IMG/VR virus record: IMGVR_UViG_3300035158_000293
Span: 59,799-123,798 of that record
Length of the DNA stretch: 64,000 nucleotides
Origin: a virus
Reading direction: 5' to 3' (one strand)
This document shows positions 1-34,976 of the stretch, piece by piece. The position numbers and the translations under genes were made by a program. Each line of letters begins with the position of its first letter. Positions within the stretch are counted from its first letter, which is position 1. The notes below the pieces were generated by a model. That model was not told where the DNA came from and did no database searches. It saw only the letters and a list, made by a program, of their open reading frames with translations.

Positions 1-3000
1 GCCGTCACCACGTCATCTTCTTGGTCGTCGGAAACGAAGAACACCTTTACGGGACCATCCACGCCTGCGGGCATGATCGCTTTGTCATACTCGACACCAG
101 CAATCACGACCCCTGCGTCGAACACTTCGTAGTTGTCGAGGTCTTCGCCATATATGAACTCGTGTTTGCCGTAAACAGGGTAATACGGCAACGCTTCTTC
201 TGTATCGTCGGCTTCTGTCACACTCTCGTTCATGCGGGCCTTGATCCAGCTCTTGAAGCGGCTGTTCTTATCCTTTGCGGACACGATCTCTATTGTGTAG
301 TCGGACTCGAGCTTTTTGATCTCTTTGAGGAGGTCCGCCTTTTCATCCCAAGTATCTCCATCTAAAGCGTGTTTCATTCTCAAAATGTCGGGCCACTCTT
401 CCGACGGTTTGTCTCGCCACTCCATGTAATTGGTTACGTCCTCAAGCTGACTGATCCCTATGAGCAATTCGGACCCTTTGGGAATCTTCAAATCCCGATC
501 TTTTATAATCCACTCGCCCTCGTTCTTGTAAACCTGTCCAATGAGCTTCAATCCCTCTGTTATTTTGCGCTCAAGCTCTTTCATAGGGACTTCGTCCAAA
601 GCATCGGCGAAGCGCTTGTAAGTGTAGTCCTCCTCACGAAGCTTTGGAATGCCGACCTTCTTCAACCACTTTGCAATATCTCGCGGTCCTCGGATTTTCT
701 TGGGCGGGTTTTTTCGGGCTACGTCCGCCAACTTGCTGTGGCCAGCTATGTGTCGATTTTCCATCACAAGTGTTTTGTATTTCGAATCACTCTTGAACGC
801 CTCTATCATGTATTCGAACACGTTGCGGTAAACCTGTGTTAAACCTATCGGGGTCTTGCTCGCGTCAAACAAACGGTAGAGCGCGTCACAATTCTTGGCG
901 GTGAGATACATGGGGTTATCGTACATAACGCGGCTAACGGCGTTCTCTTCAACAAACGCACGCCCCGGCATCTTCAACGCGGCTGACTTGTTGAACAAGT
1001 ATTGGATGTCCTCGGAGCTACTGACACCCGCAGCGCCTTCGAGCCGTCTCTTTTTCAATGACTCAAGGTGAGACGGCTTGTACACGTCGAACGACAGGTA
1101 GAAAAATTCCGGTATGTCCGCGTCGGTGTAAGACGCCTCGACCAATGGCCGACCTGCAAACGTGGCCGTGTGCTCGTTTGTATCACCGTTAGGTAAACCC
1201 TTCATGTTCGTCTCTCCCAATTTATTGGTGCCACTCTCCAAAAGACCACGCTCTTTCAGTTTGTTGTAAGCCTCGTCCCCCAGCTTGTTTGCGATACTGT
1301 ACGGCATGTTCTTGAACACGTCGTTAATTATGTAGCCGGGTTCGGCTGCACCCCGCGAACGTCGGAAGAATGGGAGAAGCTGATCCAGTATGCCGTCTAC
1401 TGTGTGCCACTTATTACTGCTGGGTTTTTCTTTTTTGATCCGCTTGGCAAGCTCGGCAAGTGTGGCCTTGCGTACTTCCTGCGGCTCAAAGAACTGGTAG
1501 TCGAGAAGGCCCGTACCGGAACCCTCGCCGTACTCCTCTATGAACTCCTCACGAGTCATAGGTACAAACTGTCCGTAACGCTCACCTCTGACGTAAACCT
1601 TCGTGATCTGACGAGGTGACACCCGCCCAATGAACAACGCTTGAGGCTCCTGACCCTTGTCCAGTAGTCCGAACGAAACACTCGGTCGGAAAGACTTGGG
1701 GTACGACTTCCTCCAAAGATCGTCCTCGCGTTCCTGTTCTGCCGGGTTTTGACTGAACAGGTCTTTACCCTGCACCGTGAACCGCAGGATAACGGGTCCG
1801 AACTTTTCGGCTGTTTTGTAGTCCGGCGCGACAAACAACCCACGGTCAAGCCGCTTGCCTCCTGAATAGTGCGGGTAAAGACGGTGTGTTGGCTTGGTGG
1901 CGTCGACGCCTTTGCGGACAAACTCCAAGGCGGTTTTTTGGTCTGTGCCGTGGAACAGTTGGAGTTTGGTGTTGGGCCGTAGCCGTGCGATGCTTCCGCG
2001 CTTGCCTTCATGGAGAGCTTCGGATTCCTCCATCCGCTCCCGCGTTCCAACGCCCTCATTCACCAGCCGTAGTTCGCCATGAGGCACGTCAAACGGGTTG
2101 TCGTAACCTTTGTCAACCGTTCGGAACCAAACACGCCTGTCAGAGCCTTCGGCAAACCGTTTGATAGCCGCATCTGTCTTTGCCACGGCCACTACCTTGT
2201 CACCTTCCCTGACGTTGTACAGGTATTTGCCACGGTGTGTCTGCGTAATAATGTAATCACCGGGTGCGGGTGACGACCACCCTTGTGTACTCTCAATTTT
2301 GAGGTTCCTCTGCGCAAGTTCCTTCATGTGTGCCTGCGTCAACTTTTTTCTGCGGGATCGGCGTTTGCGCGGTTTCATGCCGGGTCGCGCATGGCTCATA
2401 GGCACTACCTGCACGTCGGTGATACCGCTTTTCTTCAACCAATTCTTAACACGGGACACCATGTTCTGATCAAGCACCAGCACCTTGTCCAACCATTCAG
2501 GACGAAACTTGAAATCCCCTCCCCGCAACCATTCGTCTTCTTCCGCGTACTGTTCCATGAAAGCGTCGAGCATCATACCGCGCTTGACGTCCCAAAAATC
2601 ACCGACGAGGTAGTCCTCATATTCTTCCTCTTCGAACGGCTCCCCATCTTCATCAAACACACCTCCCTGAGCAGCGGCGGACGCCAACTCGTCGGGGGTT
2701 TCAATAACCCCGCCCTCCGCGTCAAAAAACTCCTCATACGGGAAGGTATCCATAGCCATGCCGTATGCTTGCTCCGCAGCAACATCGGTCATTTCGGGAG
2801 ACTGTGCGAGGACGTATTCAACAGCCGTTGGGTTTTCGTCAAACCAGTCCTCGGTGTAGTGGACCTCTGTAAAGTGTGATTCGAGTGGTTTGCGATGGAA
2901 CGCTAAAATCACATCGTGATGTGTCCCGAACATCCCACCTTCAAGCGGATAAGTCGAAAGGCTGACGAAAGCGGGTCCGCCCATGTATGATGCGTTGGCT

Positions 3001-3104
3001 TTCAACGTCCGGGATTTGAGGATGTCCCTGAGAGCTTTGTAGTGTGTGGTGTGAAAGAAGTGCTTGGTCTGCGCTTCGAACAGAGAAATTCCGCTGTTAC
3101 CCAT
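1..3104 (-). CDS. Giant phage protein with two ART-like modules (partial, runs off left edge)
   Basis: An open frame runs without a stop from ATG at 3104 (preceded by GGAAGGACAAAACA) to the left edge, at least 1034 codons. Near residues 15-60 an H-T-T-H motif followed by ALRDIL and later VSLSTYP resembles the entry of DarT/RNA-phosphotransferase-like ADP-ribosyltransferase folds. Around residues 380-440 a second block, LFHGTD...GKRLDRGLFVAPDYKTAEKFG, matches the H-G-T ... G-L-F/Y ... A-x-x-F/Y-G pattern of ART-superfamily proteins. The rest is unrecognised. Phages often carry such giant 'polyvalent' proteins, injected with the DNA or held in the virion; that role is inferred from size and neighbours. 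The ART assignment rests on motif resemblance only. Confidence 0.8.
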   Translation of the reverse strand, partial: MGNSGISLFEAQTKHFFHTTHYKALRDILKSRTLKANASYMGGPAFVSLSTYPLEGGMFGTHHDVILAFHRKPLESHFTEVHYTEDWFDENPTAVEYVLAQSPEMTDVAAEQAYGMAMDTFPYEEFFDAEGGVIETPDELASAAAQGGVFDEDGEPFEEEEYEDYLVGDFWDVKRGMMLDAFMEQYAEEDEWLRGGDFKFRPEWLDKVLVLDQNMVSRVKNWLKKSGITDVQVVPMSHARPGMKPRKRRSRRKKLTQAHMKELAQRNLKIESTQGWSSPAPGDYIITQTHRGKYLYNVREGDKVVAVAKTDAAIKRFAEGSDRRVWFRTVDKGYDNPFDVPHGELRLVNEGVGTRERMEESEALHEGKRGSIARLRPNTKLQLFHGTDQKTALEFVRKGVDATKPTHRLYPHYSGGKRLDRGLFVAPDYKTAEKFGPVILRFTVQGKDLFSQNPAEQEREDDLWRKSYPKSFRPSVSFGLLDKGQEPQALFIGRVSPRQITKVYVRGERYGQFVPMTREEFIEEYGEGSGTGLLDYQFFEPQEVRKATLAELAKRIKKEKPSSNKWHTVDGILDQLLPFFRRSRGAAEPGYIINDVFKNMPYSIANKLGDEAYNKLKERGLLESGTNKLGETNMKGLPNGDTNEHTATFAGRPLVEASYTDADIPEFFYLSFDVYKPSHLESLKKRRLEGAAGVSSSEDIQYLFNKSAALKMPGRAFVEENAVSRVMYDNPMYLTAKNCDALYRLFDASKTPIGLTQVYRNVFEYMIEAFKSDSKYKTLVMENRHIAGHSKLADVARKNPPKKIRGPRDIAKWLKKVGIPKLREEDYTYKRFADALDEVPMKELERKITEGLKLIGQVYKNEGEWIIKDRDLKIPKGSELLIGISQLEDVTNYMEWRDKPSEEWPDILRMKHALDGDTWDEKADLLKEIKKLESDYTIEIVSAKDKNSRFKSWIKARMNESVTEADDTEEALPYYPVYGKHEFIYGEDLDNYEVFDAGVVIAGVEYDKAIMPAGVDGPVKVFFVSDDQEDDVVT

Positions 3105-6200: not shown

Positions 6201-8039
6201 GAGAGGATCACCGTCAGGGTCGTTAATGACCGCGTAGATGTACGCCTTATTACCCGACGTATCGGTAACGTAATCCTTCAATTTGACCGGGCTTCCGTTC
6301 GCTTTGGCTGCCTTTGCAAAGTCGGTAGTGTGGATATTAACCATCTCAACACCGGCTTCAGCAATGTCTTGCAATTCCGGCTGTGTCGCCACGTAAGCTT
6401 CGACCTCTGTACGACGGATGTCGTCAGAAGGAACGTCAACCTCTGTCTCGGGGACCGCGGAACTGGGTAGAGAAGCCCCGACGTAATCACCCCACTCGGT
6501 GACAACTTTGTTCGTCAACTTCGACAGGCTGTGAATGTACTTTTTCAGAACGGCTTTGATGGACTTCTCGCTCGGCATGACCATCCAATCGCCAAGCTTG
6601 TCCTGCCATTTGCCGTTGGCCTGCACCGTATAGGTTGCGAAAGGTTTCCCCTGCTCCACACCGAAGCCACGAGTCTCCACCGTCATGGTGTTGTACATCT
6701 CGCCGGTAGCTCTCACAAGGAACTCAACGCGCAGATGTGGGAGCCCGACGCCCGGACCATAACCGGGGTCTTTTTGTGGTTCAACGTAAGCCACAAGCAC
6801 CGCTGTGTCGGGTTGCCCTCCGGTTTTCGTAGTGTTCGTTTTTTCCACCGCCACAATAACGGGGAAGGAACCACCCAACTTGATCGTGTCGGGAATGTTT
6901 CCAGACTGGGCAAGTCGATCAGCCACGGGCTTCAACGCCTTGCGTAACGCGGGTTTGTATCGCGCCAAGAGCTTTTCCAACTCTTTCACGGTGTACTTCT
7001 TTTTAAGCCCTTGTTTGCGACGGTGTTTCGTCTTGAAGTAGTACTTCTTGGGGAACTTCTTGGCCTTGGCTTCATACAACGCAACAAGATCAGACCTGTC
7101 GTACAGACTTTCACAAATGCGAGCCTTTGCACGAGTCAATTGCGTGCTTGACATTGAGTCAAACCGCTCCCGCAGACGCTCTATGTCTTCTGTAAGCGGT
7201 GTCCAATTCTCTGCGTCCGTAGTCACCCATCGAACCTTTTGGGCATCCTCTGCCACCACCCTGATTCGACCACCTATACGATGAAGCTGTGCTTGTTCCA
7301 AATCCACGTCGAAGAGGTGCTCCACAAGCTTGCCAGCGAGCACCTTTTCAACCACGGCCTCCTCATATTTCTTCATGGTGTCTTTCGCCAACTCCGGCTC
7401 TTTTTCTGGCTTCTTGTCTTCTTCCTCCTCTTCGCTACCTTTGTCTTTCTTTTTTGTCGCGGGTCCGGGACGTCCACCCTTGACGGGCTTGCCTTCAAGG
7501 ATAACCACATCAGACACCACCCCGTCTTCGGGAGCCACCGAACCACCATTCACCAGCATATCGAAGGTTGCGATGCTGCTCGTAGTGCTTCTCAGACGCT
7601 CAAACTCCATATCAGACCACTTGCCCTCGAAAATAGCGAGGAAGGAACTACTTCCGGGGCGTACCTGCGTCTCCACGAATTTCTCATACAGGTCACGACG
7701 CTTGGTTAAAAGAAAGGTTTCAAATTCCAGAGCGGCCATGCCGGTGTCAGAGTTGGTGTACGTGGCGTCCTTCTCTATGAATTTCTTGGCAAACTCACGA
7801 GCATCGACGCTCCCCAAAGCAACCGCTGTCTCCGTGATCAGATCAATATATGCCGCCGGATGTGCAACCGTCTCGCCCGTGATTGTAGTGGGAAGGTCAA
7901 GCCTGTCCCGCATGTCAGCGATGCGATCATAGAGAGAAACGTCGAGCTTGTCCACAAGGTCCGCCTCCAAGCGGCCTTCTTCAAGAGCTTGACGCAGACG
8001 TTTGCCTGAATACAGCGTGCATTTGGGTTGGGCCTTCAT
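3210..8039 (-). CDS. 1609-aa giant protein with C-terminal zinc ribbon
   Basis: Start ATG at 8039 has GGGAGGT eight bases upstream. No catalytic family was recognised. Visible features are a charged low-complexity stretch near residues 190-215 (Lys/Glu rich, KKKDKGSEEEEEDKKPEK), a basic region near residues 340-370, an acidic DEDEEDD stretch near residue 1380, and a C-terminal four-cysteine ribbon (CPGC...CPKCG). Together with the preceding giant gene it probably encodes a virion or ejected protein; a large polyvalent protein is the alternative. It contains two dispersed palindrome sites, at 4367 (exact) and 7148 (one mismatch). Confidence 0.8.
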   Translation of the reverse strand: MKAQPKCTLYSGKRLRQALEEGRLEADLVDKLDVSLYDRIADMRDRLDLPTTITGETVAHPAAYIDLITETAVALGSVDAREFAKKFIEKDATYTNSDTGMAALEFETFLLTKRRDLYEKFVETQVRPGSSSFLAIFEGKWSDMEFERLRSTTSSIATFDMLVNGGSVAPEDGVVSDVVILEGKPVKGGRPGPATKKKDKGSEEEEEDKKPEKEPELAKDTMKKYEEAVVEKVLAGKLVEHLFDVDLEQAQLHRIGGRIRVVAEDAQKVRWVTTDAENWTPLTEDIERLRERFDSMSSTQLTRAKARICESLYDRSDLVALYEAKAKKFPKKYYFKTKHRRKQGLKKKYTVKELEKLLARYKPALRKALKPVADRLAQSGNIPDTIKLGGSFPVIVAVEKTNTTKTGGQPDTAVLVAYVEPQKDPGYGPGVGLPHLRVEFLVRATGEMYNTMTVETRGFGVEQGKPFATYTVQANGKWQDKLGDWMVMPSEKSIKAVLKKYIHSLSKLTNKVVTEWGDYVGASLPSSAVPETEVDVPSDDIRRTEVEAYVATQPELQDIAEAGVEMVNIHTTDFAKAAKANGSPVKLKDYVTDTSGNKAYIYAVINDPDGDPLYLLYLLGQDTLTHVWDDQLLDMYEDGDMWPVEGVPGEQQLDIPTPEETGEPDLEPGATQDDAMADTEAEKPADQEADTYTDEKQVKIAEFASQYGETQATTQEFSNYGVPIVKPVVNVKIISGDAVEGMGLKSEEAGRDFSLKWAGLQVEDLPTYGGGFDLVHRVFAFEVPDGDVMVVTEKQVEEYLKSEGIEAVPSVKAFKEAMKAVGKVYTEFVKDSKEAATDPKILELREWVKNNIPKEQVVNEGGFTVKGALKLSPSDSKPKAFTSKVGPAGISVNLTKLLNAVNQGRLDAASIYFGIYTTDEGVQRSATKSTGSKEGFNLTLTYPWNNEDLLKEVEDRGGYIDQGAAEYVTYGNDVKEGFDQVREWYAKIKKKITGEGLDSEPTVTEAPPAPPSSPVIPDRVSRTVEDLKNLTFDTIEKYEETEGVGKHKGKLYRKAYYAAVDAEGNEKIWLVKVSSEGGNKIEEIGRTDKESYLESVEKFKGLKPEVQNYLSYLQELFGESAQLNNYSIAEIGRALNDPKKQTLFTVPQNPWWAQRFMEVFNDQITDPEKDGDKRGLMKILRKDMEEYLSNNPDAFVPPTGLPVGLSPYTHKPKDYVVEGFDVVSNLQETFDYSTPKQTKLARQVAHLSRHKPVPFNQVSFGANASTSEGVYLPIVKQNWPMQIIGESSVHLESVGLLFVNGPNESDGSDCRVLLRFEERGQERYMTPDTLRQYGERLDPGYGSWEPMIERVKARRRELFPEALNEAVDLMAVIKATRPKYDPDEDEEDDNFKLDKTARLAEIQRKVRMFMESVEHLDEGEGDEETPYGKKMADFIVKTIQMAAEPAWQQACRSMINHVAKGDYDREQAVKKFLTLSNAAYKGASKVVGIPYLDVTPQIRQRAAEMMRDQFEREAKKGKFDKLAYKKYQESGFTGKTAKRLKEVTTTASTGGFSSGGFAMSVGLMRCPGCGYSTGPKQSTARGMECPKCGTMMVSAEGDLEVGDGYGMLA
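4367..4381. promoter_or_regulatory. Dispersed palindrome, exact, in 1609-aa gene
   Basis: TTGACACAACGTCAA on plus. Read in the gene as FDVVSN. CG form. Confidence 0.85.
7148..7162. promoter_or_regulatory. Dispersed palindrome, one mismatch, in 1609-aa gene
   Basis: TTGACATTGAGTCAA on plus. Read as FDSMSS in the gene. Confidence 0.6.
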
Positions 8040-8041
8040 AA

Positions 8042-8083
8042 AAAATACCTCCCACGTAAATGGTTTAGCGTAGAAGGTATTTT
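8042..8083 (-). repeat. Inverted repeat spanning -10 box and Shine-Dalgarno
   Basis: Arms at 8042-8056 and 8069-8083 pair over 15 bp (read as RNA from the minus strand, two are G-U pairs). The loop adds a TAAA/TTTA pairing around a 3-base tip. One arm holds the GGGAGGT ribosome site of the 1609-aa gene, the other its TAAAAT -10 box. In transcripts reading in from the cas operon the ribosome site would be hidden; in DNA it could be an operator. Confidence 0.6.
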
Positions 8084-8106
8084 ACTATGTGCCGTCCCGT
8101 ATTCAA
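8079..8106 (-). promoter_or_regulatory. Sigma70-type promoter for the 1609-aa gene
   Basis: On the minus strand TTGAAT (8101-8106), a 16-bp spacer and TAAAAT (8079-8084). The expected start is near 8072, giving a leader of about 30 nt to the ATG at 8039. Confidence 0.5.
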
Positions 8107-8170
8107 CCTCTTTCGGAGCTTTCGCCGCGCCCCCTCTCCAATTCAAGCCACACTCTTCTGAGGGGAAACG

Positions 8171-9079
8171 CTAGTCCCACTCCACCTGTTCCGTCTTGTC
8201 CATGAAGGTCACGCCAGCAGGCCACTTTTCGGGGACCATTATCATGTAGTCCGTGAAAACTCGCGGGGAAAGAACATCGTCTTTCAACGCCACCTGCACG
8301 GCCTCGAACAGGTGAAACGCTTGGCAATTCCCCAAGGTGTCGGCATGCTCCCACACAAACAACCGACGTGTAGACATACGGCCTCGCCCCGCCGACCGGC
8401 TAAGGTCGAACATGTGGATGATGGCTTCCCACAGAGCATCCAAATCGGCGTAGGTAAAGCCTGTGTCTGCGGCGAGCATGGGGTTGACGAAACCTTCTGC
8501 GACGTACAAACCGTAAGGGATCGTGTACTTGGAACCCATCTCCGTCTCGCTTTTGTGCGAGTCCGTTTTCTCCTGCGTAGTGTACGCCACCCGCGTGATC
8601 ATGTGGTTTTTGATCAGAACACGGCTCACCGACCGAGCATCTGTTATCTGTACCGGCCCTGTAACTTGTCCGTTGTTGAACGCCGTAGTGCTCATTACCG
8701 CACCGAACGCCCGTACATCGAAAAAGTTTGCGCACATCCAATCCCGCGCCTGCGCAATGTCGTCCTTTGTGGCTTTCTCGGGGTCGATTTTCAAATTATC
8801 GTAGGACATCCTCTGACGACTCTCGAGAGCGTGCCCCGCCAGCACGAAGATGTCCTGCCCCTTTTCGACTTTACCGCCTTGCGAGTGCTTGTAGTAGTGA
8901 AAGTCCCGTATCTTGCGCTTCAGGCTTCCGTTGGAAACAAGCCCTTGAAATGTTTCCGGGTCCGTCCGTGGAGCGTTGTTGAAATCGGGATCACCGTTGG
9001 GGTTTCCGTCCACACAATCGAACATGATGAGAAAATCGTACCGCCGGTCAACTACCTTGTCACGTTTGGCGTCTGCCAT
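8171..9079 (-). CDS. cas7: Cas7 (Csd2) of type I-C CRISPR
   Basis: This 302-aa protein forms the Cascade backbone that coats crRNA. The N-terminus has the family signature FDCVDGNPNGDPD followed by N-x-PRTDPETFQGLVS and LKRKIRDF, typical of type I-C Cas7; a glycine-rich SAGRGRMSTRR segment lies near residue 240. Start ATG 9079 has an AAAGGA site. It is the last gene of the operon, downstream of the array, so its message must cross all nine repeats. Cleavage of the repeats by Cas5 would separate cas7 from cas5-cas8c. Length is normal and no key region is missing. Confidence 0.95.
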   Translation of the reverse strand: MADAKRDKVVDRRYDFLIMFDCVDGNPNGDPDFNNAPRTDPETFQGLVSNGSLKRKIRDFHYYKHSQGGKVEKGQDIFVLAGHALESRQRMSYDNLKIDPEKATKDDIAQARDWMCANFFDVRAFGAVMSTTAFNNGQVTGPVQITDARSVSRVLIKNHMITRVAYTTQEKTDSHKSETEMGSKYTIPYGLYVAEGFVNPMLAADTGFTYADLDALWEAIIHMFDLSRSAGRGRMSTRRLFVWEHADTLGNCQAFHLFEAVQVALKDDVLSPRVFTDYMIMVPEKWPAGVTFMDKTEQVEWD

Positions 9080-9135
9080 TTTGTGATCCTTTCGTTTTTT
9101 GTTTGTTTCAACCTTTTTTTTTCAACATAACCCGT

Positions 9136-9605
9136 TTTCAATCCGCGCACATGTGCGAGTGTTACTGTTGGTGCGAGTGTTGGATTTGAACCCTTCACAG
9201 TTTTCAATCCGCGCACATGTGCGAGTGTTACCTCACCCATGCGATGGGCTGTGGCAGAATGTTTTCAATCCGCGCACATGTGCGAGTGTTACCCGGTATG
9301 ATCCGTCTCTCCCTTTCAATCCGCGCACATGTGCGAGTGTTGCTGTGATAAACTATCGGTCTGATCCTGTCTTTCAATCCGCGCACATGTGCGAGTGTTA
9401 CCACCTGACCGCTTTTCCTTTTTTCAATCCGCGCACATGTGCGAGTGTTACCAATGGACGCTCATCCAGCTTGCAGTTTTTCAATCCGCGCACATGTCCA
9501 AGCGTTACTTTATTTTCAATCCGCGCACATGTACGAGTGTTGTCATGTCCTCCATGATCGGCTCAACTTTGTGTCTTTCAATCCGCGCACATGTGCGAGT
9601 GTTAC
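9136..9605 (-). CRISPR. Type I-C-like CRISPR array, 9 repeats, irregular short spacers
   Basis: Nine 30-nt repeats start at 9136, 9202, 9263, 9314, 9372, 9422, 9479, 9514 and 9576 (plus-strand view begins TTTCAATCCG, holds the palindrome CGCACATGTGCG, ends GAGTGTTAC). Read on the minus strand they end in GGATTGAAA, the standard I-C 3' handle, so crRNAs run with the cas genes. Spacers in plus-strand order are 36, 31, 21, 28, 20, 27, 5 and 32 nt; I-C spacers are normally about 34-36. The repeats at 9314, 9479 and 9514 carry changes; in the latter two the palindrome is damaged. Spacer 9166-9201 contains an 11-nt piece of the repeat. There is no leader: the repeat at 9576-9605 contains the cas8c stop codon. 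Confidence 0.95.
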
Positions 9606-11446
9606 TGGCTTTCGGTAGTTTCCGTTTCGGCCTCCTTTCTGGCGATAGCTTCCTCTGCCTGCTGTCGATCATGGGCTTTTTGGTGGTAAAAACCGACGGC
9701 GAAAAGCGCCTGATCTTCCGGGCTTTGCTGTGTCGGGAACCGCTCTATTCGATTCATTACGTCTGTCACCCGCTGGTCAATCGCGTGGCCTGCCGCCACA
9801 ATCGCGGGGTTGCGTGATCTCTTGAGTTTCGCAATGTGGTAGCGAGCCTTCGGGTTCATCTCGGAAAAAGCTTGATCCGGTACGACCGCGGCGTTACGGA
9901 AAAACTGCTCGGCAACCGTCCGCTGTATCTTGAAAATGGCTTTGTACTGCAAAGTGTCGTAGATAGCCAGCAAACGCCCACACAGGTAGGCGGGGTGGTT
10001 ATTGTTGTGGTCCAATTGCGCTTCCACGTTGCCCTCCTCTAAATCATTCAAACATACCCGCAGAAGTGCAAGTTTCTGTGACGCCCTCTGCATAGGGTCA
10101 GTACAAAAAATCCTTTCCAACAACCGTGAGAGCACTCGTCGGTCGAGCGGTTCGTTGAACAGCGCCCGCCACACCAAACTCTGCTGGATGTGGTCCTCTG
10201 GACTTTTACCTTTTGTCGCCGCACCCTCCATTGCGGGGTCTGCAAGTGTTTTTTGTAGTTTCCACAATGCGGGCGCTCGAACAAAGCGTCCGCTGTAGGG
10301 GCTCTGAACTCGCACGTCGTGGAACCATTGCCACACGTTTTCGTATATCTCCCCTATGGTGTTGTCATCGTACCGCCGCACGATCATGCGGGACATGTTC
10401 GCTGTAACGGTAAGTGAGTGAAAGCGCAAATCCGTAACCTGTGGTAGTGGTTCCGATTCTGTTCCTGCACCAAAAACTTGACACAACGTCAAACCCTGCT
10501 TCGGAGCATCCAGAACAGCACTTACAATGTCCGGGTCGGGGTTGTTCACGAACTCCATCGGAGGGTGTAAAACAGGTTCGTCGGTCCAGCACAGTAGTGC
10601 CGCGCCCCGGATATTGTATCGCGTTCGCACCTCTTTCTCGGACCTGTACCGGAGCAGATCGTTCAACGCCATAACATACGCTTTGGATGCTCGTATGCTC
10701 ATCGGGCAGTTTTGATTTTGTTTCCATCCAAACGACTCGAACGCCGCACGATTAAACGATATGAGCGATACACCCGAAGGCATACCCCCGATATTGGTGC
10801 AATGTTTGATTTTATCGTGCGTCCGCGACAACGGTCCATACTCCCCCGTCACAATACAGTATCCGTGCCCCGCGGAAGCGTGGCGTTCGAAAACACCCTC
10901 CTCGTAGTAATCTGCCCAATACTGTCGCAGGGCCTCACGCTCGACCACAGGTTCAGGTGAAGTGCTTCCGGGGATTGCGCAGTATAACGCCAACCGATTG
11001 TTGGCTACAACACCTCGTTCAACAGCTAACTCTCTGGCCTTTTTGACCACTTCGGGGTCCGCATAGAACGCCACACACGCCTTAACCGCTGGATCGTCGG
11101 TAACGTCTGCGATTGTATTCCACAATTCAACCGAGGCAACGTGACGTTCGTTGTGATTTCGCTCTTTACCTTCCGGTGTCCATGCGGGGTCCGCCCCCAA
11201 AATATACTGCACCGCGTCGCACCCCGGTAGTGGGTACAACCCGCCGGACCTGTGGTGCGGAGATTTGGGGGCTGAAAGGGTTGTTTGACCTTCCGGTGCA
11301 ATATCTTCAAAAGGCATAATGTCCACAAGCCCGCCTTTTGCATCGAGAGCAACTACGAAGTGTACCAAACCCTCTTCAAACGCTGGGTTGTTCAACTCGT
11401 CAGACAGGTTGCTTTCCGCATAGGCACACAAAGCCTTCAAATACAT
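9602..11446 (-). CDS. cas8c: Cas8c (Csd1) large subunit of type I-C Cascade
   Basis: This 614-aa protein matches the I-C large subunit in size, in its N-terminus (YLKALCAYAESN) and in its position between cas5 and cas7. In characterised systems Cas8c recognises the PAM, opens the target and docks Cas3. The ATG at 11446 (after GGGGGA) overlaps the cas5 stop at 11437. The stop codon TAA lies within the first transcribed repeat of the array. A dispersed palindrome copy is embedded at 10478-10492, read there in a different frame from other in-gene copies. No Cas3 gene is near, so a docking partner would have to come from the host or is not needed. Confidence 0.93.
   Translation of the reverse strand: MYLKALCAYAESNLSDELNNPAFEEGLVHFVVALDAKGGLVDIMPFEDIAPEGQTTLSAPKSPHHRSGGLYPLPGCDAVQYILGADPAWTPEGKERNHNERHVASVELWNTIADVTDDPAVKACVAFYADPEVVKKARELAVERGVVANNRLALYCAIPGSTSPEPVVEREALRQYWADYYEEGVFERHASAGHGYCIVTGEYGPLSRTHDKIKHCTNIGGMPSGVSLISFNRAAFESFGWKQNQNCPMSIRASKAYVMALNDLLRYRSEKEVRTRYNIRGAALLCWTDEPVLHPPMEFVNNPDPDIVSAVLDAPKQGLTLCQVFGAGTESEPLPQVTDLRFHSLTVTANMSRMIVRRYDDNTIGEIYENVWQWFHDVRVQSPYSGRFVRAPALWKLQKTLADPAMEGAATKGKSPEDHIQQSLVWRALFNEPLDRRVLSRLLERIFCTDPMQRASQKLALLRVCLNDLEEGNVEAQLDHNNNHPAYLCGRLLAIYDTLQYKAIFKIQRTVAEQFFRNAAVVPDQAFSEMNPKARYHIAKLKRSRNPAIVAAGHAIDQRVTDVMNRIERFPTQQSPEDQALFAVGFYHQKAHDRQQAEEAIARKEAETETTESQ
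10478..10492. promoter_or_regulatory. Dispersed palindrome, exact, in cas8c
   Basis: TTGACACAACGTCAA on plus. Read as LTLCQ in the gene, another frame than the 4367 copy. Confidence 0.85.
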
Positions 11447-12147
11447 CGCAATTCCCCCCACGCCTTCCTGTCCAAAACCACGAAGGGGTCTGTATTGATG
11501 ACCCCATCACGCATGACCGCTCGGTAGAACACGGGCGTGTTGTGGCCGTTTTCCCTGTAGACGATGCCGTACAACATTGTCCCCAAATCCTTCGTGACAG
11601 GAATGGGGGTGCCTTCATCGCCTGTCAGACACGTTATGTTTGCGGCATACTCTCGACATCCGAGGTACGGTTGGTGAAACTGTTGCCCCTCCCGTAAGCG
11701 ACGCAGGAACATCTCCTTGTATTTGGTCGGTCTGCTCTGTTTGTCCGCTCGATGAACCTTCGGATATGCCGTCACAATGTAGTCAACGTCCCGCAAGATT
11801 CGCCCTGTGCGGTTTGTTGTGTGCCTCGCTTGTCCCGCACCGCCCGGCTGTGGTCGGTAGGTGGAGGGGTCGCCCATCCACCGCTTTACCGTGCGCGGAG
11901 CAACTTTATTGAGGAGTTCGTTCGTCGCAAAGCTCTGCCATTTGATGGGTTTCAACACCGCAATGCTGGTGATTATCCAAATGAATTCGGGCTTCCCGAG
12001 GATAGCCCGCAGAGCACCGCGTAGTGCAGACGGTGTCGGCACCTCGTAGGATACTCGTTCAGCCTTCCCCTCGGGTCGTGTGAAACACGCCAAAGCCCCT
12101 CTGATCCTCACCGTTACGCTCGCGTGTTTTTGTCTTGTGGTAGTCAT
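11437..12147 (-). CDS. cas5: Cas5 (Cas5c/Cas5d), the type I-C pre-crRNA processing subunit
   Basis: A 236-aa protein starting at ATG 12147 behind GGGGGTGTGC; upstream in-frame residues lie in the promoter and are not coding. Near residue 20, CFTRPEGKAERVSYEV and TPSALRGALRAI match Cas5 of type I-C, the only Cas5 branch that cuts pre-crRNA because I-C lacks Cas6. It is first in the operon behind a good promoter at 12170-12198. Since the array is in the same transcript, its product both makes crRNAs and would cut its own operon mRNA between cas8c and cas7. Confidence 0.93.
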   Translation of the reverse strand: MTTTRQKHASVTVRIRGALACFTRPEGKAERVSYEVPTPSALRGALRAILGKPEFIWIITSIAVLKPIKWQSFATNELLNKVAPRTVKRWMGDPSTYRPQPGGAGQARHTTNRTGRILRDVDYIVTAYPKVHRADKQSRPTKYKEMFLRRLREGQQFHQPYLGCREYAANITCLTGDEGTPIPVTKDLGTMLYGIVYRENGHNTPVFYRAVMRDGVINTDPFVVLDRKAWGELRCI

Positions 12148-12169
12148 GCACACCCCCTTTTTTATTTTT

Positions 12170-12198
12170 AGTTTACCCGGTGGAGCGAGTTTTGTCAA
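12170..12198 (-). promoter_or_regulatory. Promoter of the cas5-cas8c-array-cas7 operon
   Basis: Minus-strand TTGACA (12193-12198), 17-bp spacer, TAAACT (12170-12175), about 20 bp upstream of the cas5 start. The -35 is consensus but is not part of the dispersed palindrome, so this operon may escape that control. Confidence 0.75.
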
Positions 12199-12239
12199 GA
12201 AAAAGCAAGAAAAAAATTTAGGCGCACATGCAATCACGG

Positions 12240-12659
12240 TCAATAAGTGCGTTCCTGAAAGGTTTGGCGCATTCTATCTACGACAAATTGGATAACGTGC
12301 TCCATTAAAGAACGTATAACCAACTGTCCGTGCTCCTCCAACAGCTCTTTGGCGGCTTGTGACACAATTTCGCTACCCCAACTGCCAACGCTCGCACCCC
12401 CACTCGTACCTTCGCTATCCAAGTACTCCTTAACAGCTTCCTTGAAGTAGTCTCGCACCTCTTCCTTGATCATTTCCCGTAAAAGTGAAGGCTTGCTCTC
12501 ACCGCCTTTTTTGCGGGGCTTGGTGAATTCTTCGATCTCTTGCTGGATTATCTGGTTCCGAGTGTCTTCGTCCATCGTTTCAACAAGGCTCTCGCGAATT
12601 GCTGCTTTCACACGAGAAGACCACACATCCGCAAGGTCTGGTTTAACATTGTAACCCAT
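12240..12659 (-). CDS. Hypothetical protein, 139 aa
   Basis: The start is taken at ATG 12659 because GGAGGT lies just before it; an in-frame ATG 15 bases further up contains that ribosome site and is less likely. The protein is mostly helical and charged, with a KPRKKGGESKP patch in the middle and Gly/Ser-rich GTSGGASVGSWGS near residue 95. No family was recognised. It sits directly upstream of the cas promoter and shares its direction. Confidence 0.7.
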   Translation of the reverse strand: MGYNVKPDLADVWSSRVKAAIRESLVETMDEDTRNQIIQQEIEEFTKPRKKGGESKPSLLREMIKEEVRDYFKEAVKEYLDSEGTSGGASVGSWGSEIVSQAAKELLEEHGQLVIRSLMEHVIQFVVDRMRQTFQERTY

Positions 12660-13601: not shown

Positions 13602-13609
13602 TGTGTCAC
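13595..13609. promoter_or_regulatory. Dispersed palindrome, one mismatch, at gene junction
   Basis: TTGACATTGTGTCAC on plus. Includes a stop codon and the next start codon. Confidence 0.7.
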
Positions 13610-14877
13610 ACCCCCAAACGTACAAGCGGAATTCTTGCTCGTGCTTGTGCAATTTTTGCACTTCCCAAATCTTTCTCAATTAACACAAAGTCGTACTCCA
13701 AACGCTGGGCCGCAAGTCCTGTTGTTCCTGAACCGGCAAACGGGTCCAAAAGCAAACCGCCCTCGGGAGGTTGTACGAGCTTACACAAATACTCCATGAG
13801 TGCAAGCGGCTTGACTGTTGGATGTTTGTTGACTACACGACCATCGTCTGTGCGTTCCTTTCGTGAGGCTTTCGCGCAGTAAAAGAACCGCGCAGCACTA
13901 CCTTCGTCCCCGAACGTGTCCGTCGCGACCGTATCAGGCTTCCATTCCCCGTACACATTCTTTCCAGCACTCTCGGACATCTGCCTGCGCGTCCCTTTCT
14001 TCATGAACCCGCTTTTTGTGTTCGGGAAGTGTTGTAGAACCTCAGCGCTCCCGTCGTGGATCAGGTTGGCGGGGAAGCGGCCTTTTTTGGAAGCACGCAA
14101 CCCTCCTTGTGCAGTAGGATCACCCTTACCCACTAGCCCCATAAACTTATCCGACATAAAACCAGCGCCAGAGGCACCATCCTGCCTAACCCAACCCGGA
14201 CCATCCACTCTACATCCGTCTATGTTTAAGCCAGCTACACCATGCTCAAGTGCGTTTTGTGCGTATGTTCCATCGAGCGGTTTCATGCAAAGCCACCAAC
14301 ATTCTACGGATGGCTTGAGTGCCGTCCCCCAGCCATCCCAAAGTTGGGCAGCGTGAGTGGCGGGGGCGGTGATGTCCAGCACGTTCTCGCCCTTTTGGTA
14401 TTCCCCCGGACGATAGTTGTGATCTTTGGCGTTACTACGATTGAGGTGCTCTGTGCCACCACCTTTCCTTCGAACTTTAGCAATCACCTCCCGCTCCGCA
14501 CCAGCGGCCTTGTCTAGTGCCTTTGAGATGTCATGGTTTTTGGGGAACCCCTGTCCTGTAACGTAGTAAACACAATCCCTTACAACAAAACCTGCGTCCT
14601 CTAATCCCATAGCGGTCCAATGGCTCGTGCGAGGGAGCGCCCAACACAGACAATGTGCGCCGGGTTTTAGAACCCGCAGGACTTCCCCCATAACAAGTGT
14701 CAACCACTCAATCCATTTGTCCCTACCTCCTTTGTTTGAATCCCATTGCTTGCCCATGAATGAGATTCCGGCGGGAGGGTCGGTGACACATGCGGTGAAT
14801 GTGTTGTCCGGGAGCCGCTTCAAGACATCCAAGCAGTCTCCGTTGACTACGGTGTTTTTTATGTCATGGAGAATCAT
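13606..14877 (-). CDS. DNA N4-cytosine/N6-adenine methyltransferase
   Basis: This 423-aa protein has permuted (beta-class) order. Motif IV TDPPAGISFMG is near residue 36, the AdoMet-binding DPFAGSGTTG near residue 385, and HPTVKPLALMEYL just before it. The catalytic tetrapeptide is DPPA instead of DPPY/W/F; the same context occurs in other phage enzymes as I remember them, so it may be a subfamily feature. A long variable target-recognition insert separates the motifs. ATG 14877 overlaps the upstream stop (ATGA). It is paralogous to the frameshifted enzyme at 15906-17685. The likely role is self-modification against restriction, or epigenetic control. Confidence 0.9.
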   Translation of the reverse strand: MILHDIKNTVVNGDCLDVLKRLPDNTFTACVTDPPAGISFMGKQWDSNKGGRDKWIEWLTLVMGEVLRVLKPGAHCLCWALPRTSHWTAMGLEDAGFVVRDCVYYVTGQGFPKNHDISKALDKAAGAEREVIAKVRRKGGGTEHLNRSNAKDHNYRPGEYQKGENVLDITAPATHAAQLWDGWGTALKPSVECWWLCMKPLDGTYAQNALEHGVAGLNIDGCRVDGPGWVRQDGASGAGFMSDKFMGLVGKGDPTAQGGLRASKKGRFPANLIHDGSAEVLQHFPNTKSGFMKKGTRRQMSESAGKNVYGEWKPDTVATDTFGDEGSAARFFYCAKASRKERTDDGRVVNKHPTVKPLALMEYLCKLVQPPEGGLLLDPFAGSGTTGLAAQRLEYDFVLIEKDLGSAKIAQARARIPLVRLGV

Positions 14878-15905: not shown

Positions 15906-17376
15906 CTAACAGAAACGCACAAGCGGAACCTGCACTCTGTTCTGTGCCACGCGAGCGCTGTTCAACTCTTTCTCAATCAACACAAAGTCGCAACCCACAC
16001 TACGAGCCGCGAGCCCTGTTGTTCCTGAACCGGCAAACGGATCGAGGATAATCCCGCCAGTCGGCGTCCGTACCAATTTGCACAAATACTCCATAAGTGC
16101 AAGCGGCTTGACTGTTGGATGCTTGTTGACTACGCGGCCATTGTCTGTGCGCTCTTTTTTATTTACCTTGGCACAATAGAAGAACCGCGTTGTGTTCTGC
16201 GAATGGTACGGGCACGGGTCCATGTCCTTCACCTTCTTGAACATGCCCTCGCTTTGCTGTTTAGTCAAAGGAGGATCACACGTACCGTCCGCTTCTCGCC
16301 ATGCACAGTTAGCGCACGAGGGTTCGACGTCGGGATCACATTGCTGGAAAAATCTTGATGCTCCACCCTTGTCGCCATGTTGGTTATGTGGACCGCCCTC
16401 ACCACGAATAAACCCTGTTATGCCATCACTACTGTAACCGCCAACCTTGCGCTTCATAGCACCTGATTGTGTGACACCACTCTGGTCGTCCAACAGACGT
16501 ACCGGGCAATCAGGGTGGCACTCCCACACCTCCACCGTTTCTTTGCCGTCAGCGTCGCCGTGACAAGGGCCACACGGTTCTTTTCCGCCTTTTTCGGCTC
16601 CCACGTTGGCAAAGCCGCCCGGACGCTTTCCTGAGCCTCCTGCGCGTTTGTCACCTCTCACTTGTGTAGTCCCTCTGCAACGACACGCTGGGTGGTGTGT
16701 GAGAATTATGTTGGCTGGCCAACGACCTTGTTTGTGGGCTCCTGTCGGTATCGCGTTTGTCTCGGGACGATCTTCTCGACCTTCCGCCGTTCGCCACGCA
16801 TTGAAATTACGACCGCCGCCCGGAACGGGTGATCCGGGGTTGATTCTACACCCGTCAATGTTCAGACCAGCTACACCATGCTCAAGCGCATTTTGAGCGT
16901 ATGTCCCATCGAGCGGTTTCATCGCCACAATCACGCTTTCCCATGCTGGTTTGAGTGCTGTCCCCCATCCGTCCCAAAGCTGGGCAGCGTCGGTGGAGGC
17001 TTCGTATACATTCCCGCTGTGTGCCAACCCGTAGATCGTCCCGTCGCCCCGTCTATCAGTCTTGACGCCTCTTCGTGTGAGGCGCAAGTCCTCTGCTCGA
17101 ACTCTGTCCCTCCACTTTGGCGACACTCCCAACCGATCAACAAGGATGTTGTATGCTTCAAGAGACGGAACACGAAAGCCGTGATCGGTTCTTTCCCAGT
17201 TGTCTGTCACATAACCGTACTGAGGGAACCACCCCTTCAATTCCCGGCGCGACACACCCGCTTGTTCGCGGCACATCCGTATTTCTTTAGCCAGCTCTTT
17301 TCTCGCTTGTAGGTGTAGAGCCGACCGACCTCCCGCCTTGTCAATCGCCTTCGCAATGTCATGGTTTTTGGGGAAG
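15906..17376 (-). pseudogene. Second DNA methyltransferase, C-terminal part after frameshift
   Basis: Contains FPKNHDIAKAIDKAGG, an XRE-like helix-turn-helix segment (LAKEIRMCREQAGVSRREL, then VTDNWERTDHGF), the target-recognition region and C-terminal motifs HPTVKPLALMEYL and DPFAGSGTTG. The matching N-terminal half with motif IV is in another frame (17377-17685). Comparison with the paralogue at 13606 suggests a 4-base insertion at about 17376-17380: removing four bases would rejoin GSG directly to FPKN. Unless +1 frameshifting rescues it, the enzyme is inactive. It also carries extra Cys-rich segments (CRCRGTT, CGPCHGD, CANCAW) absent from the paralogue. Confidence 0.75.
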
Positions 17377-17685
17377 CTAACCAGAGCCATACAGCCACAT
17401 AATGCAATCGCGGATTTCGAAACCCGCATCTTCGATTGCACATGTCAGCCGATGGCTCGTTCTGGTCCCTCCGAAGGCCAGTAGATGTCCGCCGGGCTTG
17501 AGTACACGGAGAACCTCTTTCCAGTAAGTCTCCCCCGGCACGCCGTGATCCCAATCCTTACTCATAAAAAATAATCCATATGGCGGGTCTGTTACACAAG
17601 CATCAATACAAGCGTCAGGAAGACGCTTCAAAACCTCCAAGCAATCTCCATTGACTACGGTATTCAAAACATCGTTAAAGCACAC
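17377..17685 (-). pseudogene. Second DNA methyltransferase, N-terminal part with DPPY
   Basis: Start GTG 17685 is nine bases after AGGAGG. Encodes VNGDCLEVLKRLPD then TDPPYGLFFM, the catalytic motif IV, and RVLKPGGHLLAFGG. It stops at TAG 17377 immediately after YGSG, exactly where the paralogue continues with FPKNHD in the other frame. The fragment lacks the AdoMet motif I, which is in the downstream frame. The intact DPPY suggests the break is recent, programmed, or a sequence error. Confidence 0.75.
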
Positions 17686-24575: not shown

Positions 24576-24693
24576 CTGCTTCACCCCCACCGGGACTCAA
24601 ACCCTCTACAAGAAGTGTACAGCATGATTCACACATGTGCAACCATAAAATCTACTTTTTACAGCATGGCCGGGGTGATATGCAAATAATACA

Positions 24694-24708
24694 TTGACGT
24701 TGTGTCAA
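24694..24708. promoter_or_regulatory. Dispersed palindrome, exact, intergenic
   Basis: TTGACGTTGTGTCAA on plus; sits between a terminator and the 24575 gene, in the spacer of a possible TTTATG/TATTAT promoter. Confidence 0.85.
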
Positions 24709-24711
24709 CAT

Positions 24712-24744
24712 AAAAAGACGCCGTTGGTCGGGCAACCAACGGCG
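24712..24744 (-). terminator. Rho-independent terminator after methyltransferase gene
   Basis: Ten-base-pair stem (24719-24728 with 24735-24744), loop of six, then a run of five T on the minus strand (24712-24716). The 24576-24822 gap holds this terminator and the palindrome at 24694; a weak TTTATG/17/TATTAT promoter spans the palindrome. Nothing else is seen there. Confidence 0.85.
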
Positions 24745-24822
24745 CGGCGGACCTATTTCTACCGTAACGAGCTTGTGGTGCTGTCTCCTGTGAGGAGATG
24801 CAGAGCCAACATATATAATATA

Positions 24823-25476
24823 TCACATCCAACGGGGTTTGTCAAGTGGAGGACTTAGTAAATGGAAGGTTTCGCCGTGAGGTCTATCCCACGCCTTATC
24901 ATAAGTAAAGAAGGCGTAAAGGGTTGAGTCAACTTTACCATCTCCGGTAAAAGATGGTCTTTTTGACACAAACGCCATGTGTCTTGGGAATATCTCCTCT
25001 TCGTGGAACTTACGGCGCGAATCAGACTCCATCCACGCAGCTCGTAACAGCAGTAGCACCACGCCGTCGTCTTTCGTAACAGCAAGGCACTTACGAACGA
25101 AAGGCAAAAGAATTTCGGAAGAGTACGGGGGATTGGTAGCTACAACATCGAACTTGAATTCCGGGGGTGCCCACTTCAAAAAGTCTGTGCAGGTGTCACA
25201 AACGTCGAACAGCCCTTTTGGAGGGGACACCTCTCGAACATCCACACCACGCACTTCGCACGAGGGCCAACGTGTCTTAACCACTTGTGCAAAAGGTGCG
25301 TGATCACCACACCCCGGCTCCAAAAATTTTTCGGGTGCGGTTTGTAGAGGAAAAGCATCGAAGAAGGACTGAACCAACGCCAACGGCGTCTGGTAATTGT
25401 CATTGGCTATGCGTTTGCGCTTGGGTTCTTTCTTAACAGGTTTCTTGACCCGCTTAGGTCTTTTGTGTACGCGCAC
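24823..25476 (-). CDS. DNA adenine-N6 methyltransferase, NPPY type
   Basis: A 217-aa protein with FLEPGCGDHAPFA (AdoMet motif I) near residue 50 and ATNPPYSSEIL (catalytic NPPY) near residue 110, in alpha/gamma-class order. The start is taken at GTG 25476 behind AAAGGGGGC; longer in-frame readings overlap the tail-fibre gene. The N-terminus is very basic (HKRPKRVKKPVKKEPKRK), probably DNA-contacting. A terminator follows. Target sequence unknown. Confidence 0.85.
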   Translation of the reverse strand: MRVHKRPKRVKKPVKKEPKRKRIANDNYQTPLALVQSFFDAFPLQTAPEKFLEPGCGDHAPFAQVVKTRWPSCEVRGVDVREVSPPKGLFDVCDTCTDFLKWAPPEFKFDVVATNPPYSSEILLPFVRKCLAVTKDDGVVLLLLRAAWMESDSRRKFHEEEIFPRHMAFVSKRPSFTGDGKVDSTLYAFFTYDKAWDRPHGETFHLLSPPLDKPRWM

Positions 25477-25520
25477 ATCGCCCCCTTTTGTCTTTTGAAC
25501 TCCTACGTCTGTAGGTTTGG

Positions 25521-27461: not shown

Positions 27462-27498
27462 GCCATCTCCGCACGAAACAAGGGAAATTCACACAGCT

Positions 27499-27527
27499 AT
27501 TCTAGCCCTCGCTCGCCGCAATGTCAA
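27499..27527 (-). promoter_or_regulatory. Strong sigma70-type promoter for tail fibre gene
   Basis: Minus-strand TTGACA (27522-27527), 17-bp spacer, TAGAAT (27499-27504). It lies at the 3' end of the preceding gene. Its start TTGACATTG matches one half of the dispersed palindrome but the other half is lost. Confidence 0.75.
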
Positions 27528-27930
27528 CATCTGTTGGAGGATGTGCTTGTACTGGTGCGGTAATCGCTACGAAAGTCTTGTAAGGGTTCTTGAAGCCCAA
27601 CCGCCGAAAAAGAAACGCCAACGGTGTTTTCCAAAACATGAAGGAAATAAAGCGCGTAAGCCAACCGAAGGTGTTTATCAGAAAATCGACATCCACCAAC
27701 CGTTCCCCGGAAGGCACTTGTGCCTGTACTTGCGCATAGACACGAGTGAACACAAGCTCGGAAACTACGCGGTTTCTTACTGCTTTCAACCGATTCGTTG
27801 CAGAAGCGTCGCTGGACGCCGCGATTTTCTGTTCGAGAGCATCTCGCGCTTCAGCCAACGGGTAGTCTGCAAACTCTTGCGCTTCCTCGGGCAACCCTTC
27901 CAATTCCCCCAAGGTTTCGTAAACTCTCAC
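27502..27930 (-). CDS. Hypothetical protein, 142 aa
   Basis: Start GTG 27930 behind AGGAGGCCGT; the longer in-frame reading overlaps nrdJ. The N-terminal half is helical and acidic (YETLGELEGLPEEAQEF), followed by LAEARDALEQKIAA. The C-terminal half has a hydrophobic stretch (FISFMFWKTPLAFLFRRL) that could be an amphipathic or membrane helix. Function unknown; it directly follows nrdJ. Confidence 0.65.
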   Translation of the reverse strand: MRVYETLGELEGLPEEAQEFADYPLAEARDALEQKIAASSDASATNRLKAVRNRVVSELVFTRVYAQVQAQVPSGERLVDVDFLINTFGWLTRFISFMFWKTPLAFLFRRLGFKNPYKTFVAITAPVQAHPPTDVDIAASEG

Positions 27931-27938
27931 ACGGCCTC

Positions 27939-30215: not shown

Positions 30216-30256
30216 GACAACCCCCTAATCGACTCGATTGGTGTAGTTATTATGGT

Positions 30257-30517
30257 TTACAGCGGGCAGTTTCCATTCGGGCACTCTGGTCCGCTGAAAC
30301 TGTCTGCCCCTGCGTTGAAAGGTTTGTGCTTACCGTTTTTACCGTTGGTTCCGTTGGTTCTGTACACGCCGTTGGTGCCGCCTATACGGGCCAAACGGTT
30401 CTCAGGCAAACGAAGTGCTCCAAACGCCTCCAACCATTGATACAATGCGGACAACTCCTCGTCCGCTACGTCGTAAGTGTAAGTGCCACCGTCACTTTTG
30501 ATTGTAACCTCTGCCAT
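30257..30517 (-). CDS. Hypothetical protein, 86 aa, Asn/Gly-rich centre
   Basis: N-terminal 35 residues (VTIKSDGGTYTYDVADEE) look like a small beta unit and helix. The middle is GTNGVYRTNGTNGKNGK, low complexity from a short DNA repeat. The C-terminus has CPNGNC. ATG 30517. Sits between nrdJ and a zinc-ribbon gene; function unknown. Confidence 0.6.
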   Translation of the reverse strand: MAEVTIKSDGGTYTYDVADEELSALYQWLEAFGALRLPENRLARIGGTNGVYRTNGTNGKNGKHKPFNAGADSFSGPECPNGNCPL

Positions 30518-30520
30518 CTG

Positions 30521-30802: not shown

Positions 30803-30844
30803 ACTATCACCGTCCTCATATTGCTGAAAAAGTGAAATGCCGCG

Positions 30845-34061: not shown

Positions 34062-34070
34062 GTTGAACCC

Positions 34071-34951: not shown

Positions 34952-34976
34952 TCTCTTCCCTTTCGTTGTCGTTCAG

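What the first reader, a model, noticed from the sequence alone, without database searches (positions are those of the whole stretch)
8171..12198. Phage-borne type I-C Cascade without Cas3 or adaptation genes
cas5, cas8c, cas7 and an array are present; cas3, cas1, cas2 and cas4 are absent from the 64 kb. With an intact P(TTGACA/17/TAAACT) promoter and normal-length proteins it should form a DNA-binding complex unable to degrade targets alone. It might silence host or rival phage genes, or borrow host Cas3. Cas3-less I-C systems have been reported in huge phages; the layout here is unusual.
Basis: partly seen in the sequence, partly recalled or inferred. Interest (0 to 1): 0.82.

Follow-up and report, generated by a model that had tools for sequence, protein, structure and literature searches.

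The report
Phage CRISPR guide complex lacking scissors
A large uncultured phage carries the RNA-guided DNA-finding part of a CRISPR system but neither the enzyme that cuts DNA nor the genes that record new invaders, and its nine-repeat guide array, with oddly short spacers, sits inside the gene cluster itself, so it probably switches genes off or blocks them instead of destroying DNA.

Summary
Full-length cas5c, cas8c and cas7c (type I-C) and a CRISPR array form one operon (12198-8171, minus strand) in a 123.8-kb phage record. Profile searches find no Cas3, Cas1, Cas2, Cas4, SF2 helicase or TniQ in that record. The operon's own promoter and unrelated neighbours rule out an overlooked cas3 in it.

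It lies between cas8c and cas7, with the cas8c stop codon inside the first repeat. None of 83 other I-C loci (a few duplicates) has an array there. Its spacers are short and irregular (32, 5, 27, 20, 28, 21, 31, 36 nt): 4 of 8 intervals lie over 6 nt from the array median, against 4 of 1,036 in 42 arrays with Cas1. Cas8c keeps the internal start for Cas11c and folds like solved I-C Cas8c.

Best reading: a nuclease-free, fixed-guide Cascade that binds and silences DNA (about 0.5). No target was found, so function is inferred. Similar Cas3-less, Cas1-less modules with three degenerate repeats occur in a Pseudomonas prophage, whose host has no Cas3 above cut-off, and on a Streptomyces plasmid. 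Cas3-less I-C variants in huge phages are already published; this is a new variant.

The parts
12170..12198 (-). sigma70-like promoter of the operon (TTGACA-17-TAAACT)
   Evidence: joint-best promoter-like match (10 of 12) in 7900-12400; sequence. Consensus match only, not shown to be active.
11437..12147 (-). cas5c (236 aa), predicted pre-crRNA endonuclease and crRNA 5'-handle cap
   Evidence: ATG at 12147 after AAAGGGGGTG. Active-site region: Lys kept (74 of 80 systems), His/Tyr position is Tyr (20 of 80), Leu at the Tyr/His/Phe position (8 of 80), Gly where Trp is usual (72 of 80).
9602..11446 (-). cas8c (614 aa), large subunit for PAM recognition and R-loop formation; overlaps the cas5c end
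   Evidence: AlphaFold2 mean pLDDT 86, pTM 0.81; Foldseek to I-C Cas8c 8g9t_K, TM 0.71/0.75
9602..10027 (-). cas11c, predicted internal in-frame GTG start (141 aa) after AGAGGAGGG
   Evidence: start column within 2 residues of the first residue of the solved D. vulgaris Cas11c chain; this region of the model matches Cas11c 9jhb_B with TM 0.91
9136..9605 (-). CRISPR array: 9 repeats of 30 nt (GTAACACTCGCACATGTGCGCGGATTGAAA and variants), 8 spacers of 32, 5, 27, 20, 28, 21, 31, 36 nt, between cas8c and cas7
   Evidence: spacing outlier; unique position among 83 I-C loci
9576..9605 (-). repeat 1; the cas8c stop codon TAA (9604-9602) lies inside it
9479..9543 (-). repeats 2 and 3 separated by 5 nt; repeat 3 has a broken hairpin stem, so this unit probably makes no usual guide
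9166..9201 (-). spacer 8 with a partial copy of the repeat's 5' part (AACACTCGCAC) inside: sign of slippage or rearrangement in the array
   Evidence: sequence read directly
8171..9079 (-). cas7c (302 aa), Cascade backbone; separated from the last repeat by a 56-nt leader

Best explanation
It is a phage-encoded, adaptation-less and nuclease-less type I-C Cascade with a fixed guide set. One transcript from the promoter at 12198 covers cas5c-cas8c(cas11c)-array-cas7c. Cas5c would cut the repeats, releasing short crRNAs and separating the cas7 message from the cas5-cas8c message. Cas5c, Cas8c, Cas11c and Cas7 would assemble on the crRNAs, bind matching DNA next to a PAM and form a stable R-loop that blocks transcription or replication of rival phage, plasmid or host genes without degrading them. 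Shown by sequence: the genes, their integrity, the internal Cas11c start, operon order, array structure, and absence of nuclease and adaptation genes from the record. Inferred from known I-C and I-B biology: assembly, processing, PAM-dependent binding and silencing. Unknown: the targets.
For: All Cascade subunits are intact and family-typical. Cas8c keeps 75% of columns conserved in Cas3-bearing systems, more than several phage systems that have Cas3, so there is no sign of decay. No Cas3, SF2 helicase or Cas1 in the record. I-C Cascade with cas3 left out represses genes in N. gonorrhoeae (PMC10865793). In a type I-B system, spacers of 21-24 nt repress strongly while interference and priming disappear, and at 28-30 nt repression persists with weak residual cutting (PMC10989794); six of the eight spacers here (20, 21, 27, 28, 31, 32 nt) are at or below the lower end of usual type I lengths. 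Parallel cases: a Pseudomonas prophage with cas5-8c-7, three degenerate repeats and spacers shared with a viral contig, in a genome with no Cas3 above cut-off, and a Streptomyces plasmid.
Against: No protospacer for any spacer in the phage itself, 50,697 phage records or 72,556 plasmids, nor exact seed-pattern matches for three spacers in IMG/VR. Repeat hairpins are weak (-4.6 to -6.8 kcal/mol for the intact ones, against about -13 to -15 for the canonical-type I-C repeats folded beside them) and, in a full-length fold, the palindromic repeats pair with one another, so processing may be poor. Two adjacent repeats and a partial repeat inside spacer 8 suggest some array erosion. The I-B spacer-length result may not carry over to I-C.
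Confidence: 0.5

Rival explanations
1. The phage Cascade borrows a Cas3 from a host type I-C system and so degrades rival DNA.
For: Cas8c is globally normal; phages whose repeats match the host's have been proposed to use host Cas proteins (PMC7162821).
Against: No genome or viral contig holds the repeat core exactly; most spacers are short, which removes or weakens interference in I-B; the Pseudomonas prophage parallel lives in a genome with no Cas3 above cut-off. The host of this phage is unknown.
Confidence: 0.17
2. Counter-defence: the operon interferes with host type I-C immunity, its repeats or Cascade acting as dominant-negative decoys for host Cas5/Cas7 or Cas3, like RNA anti-CRISPRs.
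For: Racrs are repeat mimics made by phages, and RacrIC1 inhibits type I-C (PMC10651486); short and irregular spacers would not matter for decoys.
Against: Racr candidates are described as solitary repeats not associated with cas genes; here three full Cascade genes and nine repeats are kept. No repeat match to a host system was found.
Confidence: 0.13
3. A decaying remnant of a once complete I-C system: adaptation and cas3 lost, the array eroding without function.
For: Irregular spacers, adjacent repeats 2-3, broken repeat 3, partial repeat in spacer 8.
Against: All three cas genes are open, full length and conserved, with promoter, ribosome sites and internal Cas11c start kept; the core repeat is identical in seven of nine copies over its last 28 nt.
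Confidence: 0.15
4. CRISPR-associated transposon or a Cascade armed with another nuclease (HNH-Cascade).
For: Published type I CASTs, I-C included, mostly lack Cas3 (PMC11656645).
Against: No TniQ in the record; Cas8c and Cas5c have ordinary length and no extra domain.
Confidence: 0.02

Closest known systems
Type I-C (Dvulg) CRISPR-Cas, e.g. Desulfovibrio vulgaris and Neisseria lactamica
   Same: cas5c-cas8c-cas7c order, Cas11c from inside cas8c, repeat ending GGATTGAAA, protein families and Cas8c fold
   Different: no cas3, cas4, cas1 or cas2; array inside the operon between cas8c and cas7 instead of outside it; short irregular spacers; weak repeat hairpin
Type I-C variant of huge phages (Al-Shayeb 2020, PMC7162821)
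   Same: phage-borne, no Cas1/Cas2, no Cas3
   Different: those carry a helicase in place of Cas3 and a second Cas-Phi system; here no SF2 helicase was found; array position and spacer lengths differ from the I-C-related viral loci surveyed here
Cas3-less cas5-8c-7 of the Pseudomonas laurylsulfatiphila prophage (L077) and viral contig L016
   Same: same three genes only; short array of degenerate repeats next to the operon; on a phage
   Different: three repeats upstream of cas5 with spacers of about 34-36 nt; Cas8c about 25% identical to the window's
Type IV-A CRISPR systems of plasmids
   Same: nuclease-free interference through RNA-guided repression is the proposed way of working
   Different: not homologous as a system; IV-A uses DinG; here the proteins are I-C
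CreTA / crRNA-like regulatory RNAs of type I-B
   Same: shortened guides with Cascade give repression without cutting
   Different: toxin-antitoxin modules with one guide; here an array in a phage operon

Membership tests
Type I-C CRISPR-Cas effector module (Cascade) | Cas5c, Cas8c and Cas7c of the I-C families | tested here: met
   NCBIfam above cut-off for all three
Type I-C CRISPR-Cas effector module (Cascade) | Cas11c made from an internal start in cas8c | tested here: met
   in-frame GTG 10027 with AGAGGAGGG at the D. vulgaris position; translation itself not tested
Type I-C CRISPR-Cas effector module (Cascade) | associated repeat array with I-C-type repeat | tested here: met
   9 repeats ending GGATTGAAA
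[quoted passage not shown]
   none in 123.8 kb; record may be incomplete
[quoted passage not shown]
[quoted passage not shown]
   5-36 nt; outlier against 42 Cas1-bearing arrays
Huge-phage I-C variant (PMC7162821) | helicase in place of Cas3 | tested here: not met
   no Helicase_C in the record; other helicase superfamilies not tested
CRISPR-associated transposon | TniQ and Tn7 genes | tested here: not met
   no TniQ
RNA anti-CRISPR (Racr) | solitary repeat without cas genes, similar to a host repeat | tested here: not met
   nine repeats within a cas operon; no host with the repeat core found
Nuclease-free CRISPR silencing (works like) | guide-dependent repression of a target | not testable with these tools
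   needs a reporter experiment; no protospacer found

The most novel reading that the evidence does not exclude
A stand-alone phage gene-silencing device: the array inside the operon works both as a fixed set of short binding-only guides and as a Cas5c processing element that splits the message, so that Cas7, needed in several copies, is made apart from Cas8c and Cas5c. It would be one of several mobile elements that have turned I-C Cascade into a natural CRISPRi system.
Probability: 0.25. Interest if true: 0.78.

Novelty: new variant of a known kind. Interest (0 to 1): 0.58.

Why it matters
Natural CRISPR systems that lost the cutter are known as plasmid type IV and as transposon systems; for phage type I systems the use of a Cascade without Cas3 has remained a suggestion. 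This compact operon of about 4 kb, with guides embedded in it, can be moved whole into E. coli, so whether phages use Cascade as a repressor becomes directly testable. The comparative data (regular arrays with Cas1, irregular ones on viral contigs where no Cas1 was found) also give a measurable sign of arrays that no longer acquire spacers.

Tried and rejected
Spacer targets: own genome (best matches equal shuffles), phages and plasmids (only E>=2 hits), seed patterns of spacers 1, 5 and 7 in IMG/VR (none), all loci in hand (nothing convincing). Exact repeat core in IMG/VR and 84,980 genomes: none. Close relatives of Cas8c or of the downstream 1609-aa protein in IMG/VR: none; portal relatives only at about 50% identity, so conservation of the array in sister phages could not be tested. 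CAST and HNH-Cascade rejected. Rfam: only chance matches. tRNA-like look of spacer 8 (GGGTTCAAATCC...CACCA): dropped, the T-arm does not pair. Cas3-recruitment loss in Cas8c: the conserved-column test shows no region specific to Cas3-less systems, so it does not discriminate. Tree placement of the window's Cas8c/Cas7 is unresolved, on a long branch. Single-sequence AlphaFold of Cas5c failed (pLDDT 32); no viral structure matches Cas8c in BFVD. The L095 'array' in the spacing survey was discarded because its 28-84 nt periodicity does not look like a CRISPR array; HMM-based cas8c-cas7 gaps of L020, L036 and L037 are alignment artefacts, their open frames abut.

Full report
What is there. The window is bases 59,799-123,798 of a 123,798-bp virus record. 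The record is a genuine tailed phage: portal protein, a terminase-like protein, phage DNA polymerase, SbcC/SbcD-like nuclease, single-strand binding protein, ribonucleotide reductase and tail fibres, with five tRNA genes. On the minus strand, from a consensus-like promoter at 12198-12170, lie cas5c (12147-11437), cas8c (11446-9602), a CRISPR array (9605-9136) and cas7c (9079-8171). All three proteins are full length and above the NCBIfam cut-offs for type I-C. Upstream is a 144-aa gene of no known family; downstream, across 131 nt, begins an unrelated 1609-aa gene.

What is missing. Profile searches over the whole record find no Cas3 core, no Cas1, no Helicase_C domain of any kind, and no Cas3, Cas4, Cas1 or Cas2 with profiles I built from plasmid-borne I-C systems. 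TniQ is absent too. The record is linear and may be incomplete, so this holds for 123.8 kb, not for the finished genome.

Anatomy of the array. The nine repeats read GTAACACTCGCACATGTGCGCGGATTGAAA with few changes. The last positions GGATTGAAA are those of other I-C repeats in the loci examined here. Unlike every other I-C system examined, the array lies between cas8c and cas7, and the cas8c stop codon TAA (9604-9602) is part of repeat 1. In 83 other loci (a few of them duplicates) the cas8c-cas7 distance is 24 nt at the median; the three apparent exceptions are alignment ends of abutting genes. Spacer lengths are 32, 5, 27, 20, 28, 21, 31 and 36 nt. In 42 arrays of systems with Cas1, 4 of 1,036 intervals deviate by more than 6 nt from the array median; here 4 of 8 do (Fisher p about 1e-7; intervals within an array are not fully independent). 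In viral contigs where no Cas1 was found, 18 of 164 do. Spacer 8 contains a partial repeat, and repeats 2 and 3 are 5 nt apart, which points to reshaping by slippage or recombination instead of Cas1-Cas2 insertion. The repeat hairpin is weak: -4.6 to -6.8 kcal/mol for the intact variants and -2.5 for repeat 3, against about -13 to -15 for the canonical-type I-C repeats folded beside them.

State of the proteins. Cas8c keeps 36 of 48 columns that are at least 85% conserved among Cas3-bearing systems, better than several phage systems that do have Cas3. AlphaFold2 with 31 relatives gives pLDDT 86 and pTM 0.81, and Foldseek matches it to solved I-C Cas8c (8g9t_K, TM 0.71/0.75) with the C-terminal part matching Cas11c (TM 0.91). 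An in-frame GTG at 10027 after AGAGGAGGG lies within two residues of the first residue of the solved D. vulgaris Cas11c chain, so the separately translated small subunit of I-C (reported for D. vulgaris, PMC7684278) is probably made. Cas5c keeps the invariant lysine of the proposed active site and has Tyr and Leu at the two variable positions, residues also seen in other systems; a Gly replaces the usual Trp next to it. The active-site assignment itself is from memory of the B. halodurans Cas5d work. Nothing shows decay of the proteins.

Mechanism. The parts suffice to make a I-C Cascade. Without Cas3 such a complex binds and represses: an I-C Cascade with cas3 left out is a working repression tool in Neisseria gonorrhoeae (PMC10865793). 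Guide length matters too: in a type I-B system, spacers of 21-24 nt repress strongly while interference and primed adaptation are lost, with or without cas3 (PMC10989794). Most spacers here are at or below the short end, so even a borrowed Cas3 would probably cut poorly. I therefore favour a fixed-guide silencer. The position of the array suggests a second role: Cas5c cleavage would free the cas7 message with its own leader from the cas5-cas8c message, which would end in a repeat hairpin. That is inference only. No target was found, so who is silenced is unknown.

Parallels. The survey turned up similar modules. In Pseudomonas laurylsulfatiphila a prophage-like region (terminase, integrase, antiterminator Q, S24 repressor nearby) carries only cas5-cas8c-cas7, with three degenerate repeats upstream of cas5. 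The same arrangement, about 92% identical as read from the alignment and including the spacers, is on IMG/VR contig L016 (repeats at about 985-1170). That Pseudomonas genome has no Cas3 above the family cut-off, whereas the nearest Pseudomonas relative found (67% in Cas8c) has cas3 through cas2 and a regular array. A Streptomyces linear plasmid has cas5c-cas8c-cas7c with three degenerate repeats just downstream; the Cas8c hit list shows near-identical matches in three further Streptomyces plasmids whose surroundings I did not examine. These cases make a Cas3-independent use of I-C Cascade by mobile elements more likely than any single locus would.

Relation to what is known. Phage type I systems without adaptation or Cas3 are published: PMC7162821 reports a I-C variant in two related huge phages with a helicase in place of Cas3 and suggests repression as one possibility, and PMC11656645 reviews such systems. 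This locus is a new variant: no SF2 helicase, array inside the operon, short irregular spacers. It meets the tests for a I-C Cascade and fails those for a complete I-C system, a CAST and a Racr. Among 50,697 GenBank phage records only two unverified faecal contigs encode a I-C Cas8c, and both carry cas4, cas1 and cas2 as well.

Limits. The host is unknown; close relatives of the phage are not in the collections, so selection on the array could not be tested; all functional steps are inferred. The literature search covers open-access papers only and supplementary files could not be read, so an earlier description of the Pseudomonas or Streptomyces modules may have been missed.

Noticed in passing
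L077 5.9-9.9 kb; L016 985-4799: Pseudomonas prophage and a related viral contig (about 92% identical over the array region) share a Cas3-less cas5-cas8c-cas7 with a three-repeat degenerate mini-array and conserved spacers; host genome without Cas3 above cut-off.
   Followed up: partly
L044 15593-19437: Streptomyces linear plasmid with cas5c-cas8c-cas7c only and three degenerate repeats downstream; near-identical Cas8c hits in three other Streptomyces plasmids (not examined).
   Followed up: partly
L018, L024, L032, L033, L035, L037 (viral contigs): I-C-type arrays on viral contigs where no Cas1 was found have clearly less regular repeat spacing than arrays of systems with Cas1 (18 of 164 vs 4 of 1,036 intervals off by more than 6 nt); could be a general marker of non-acquiring arrays.
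   Followed up: partly
window 9293-9371: Spacers 5 and 6 share GAC(A)GGATCA(G/T)ACCG (shuffle p 0.003 for the pair, not significant after 21 comparisons), in different register.
   Followed up: no
window 13606-14877 and 15906-17441: Two DNA-methylase-like genes upstream of the operon share nearly the same stretches (FPKNHD, WDGWGTALKP, HPTVKPLALMEYLCKLV), apparently paralogues.
   Followed up: no
window 40812-43691: 959-aa terminase-like protein with a sub-threshold intein splicing domain match.
   Followed up: no
record 52088-62902 (window 1-3104) and record 24624-35198: Two giant open frames of 3604 and 3524 aa, not searched.
   Followed up: no
L016 10890-11879: PAPS-reductase-domain protein and a serine recombinase on the same contig as the Cas3-less cas genes; CysH-like proteins also accompany type IV-B CRISPR.
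   Followed up: no
L033 (618,736-bp viral contig): cas7-cas5-cas8c order with a long array and no Cas3 core or Cas1 match in the whole record: a Cas3-less I-C relative on a huge viral contig.
   Followed up: partly
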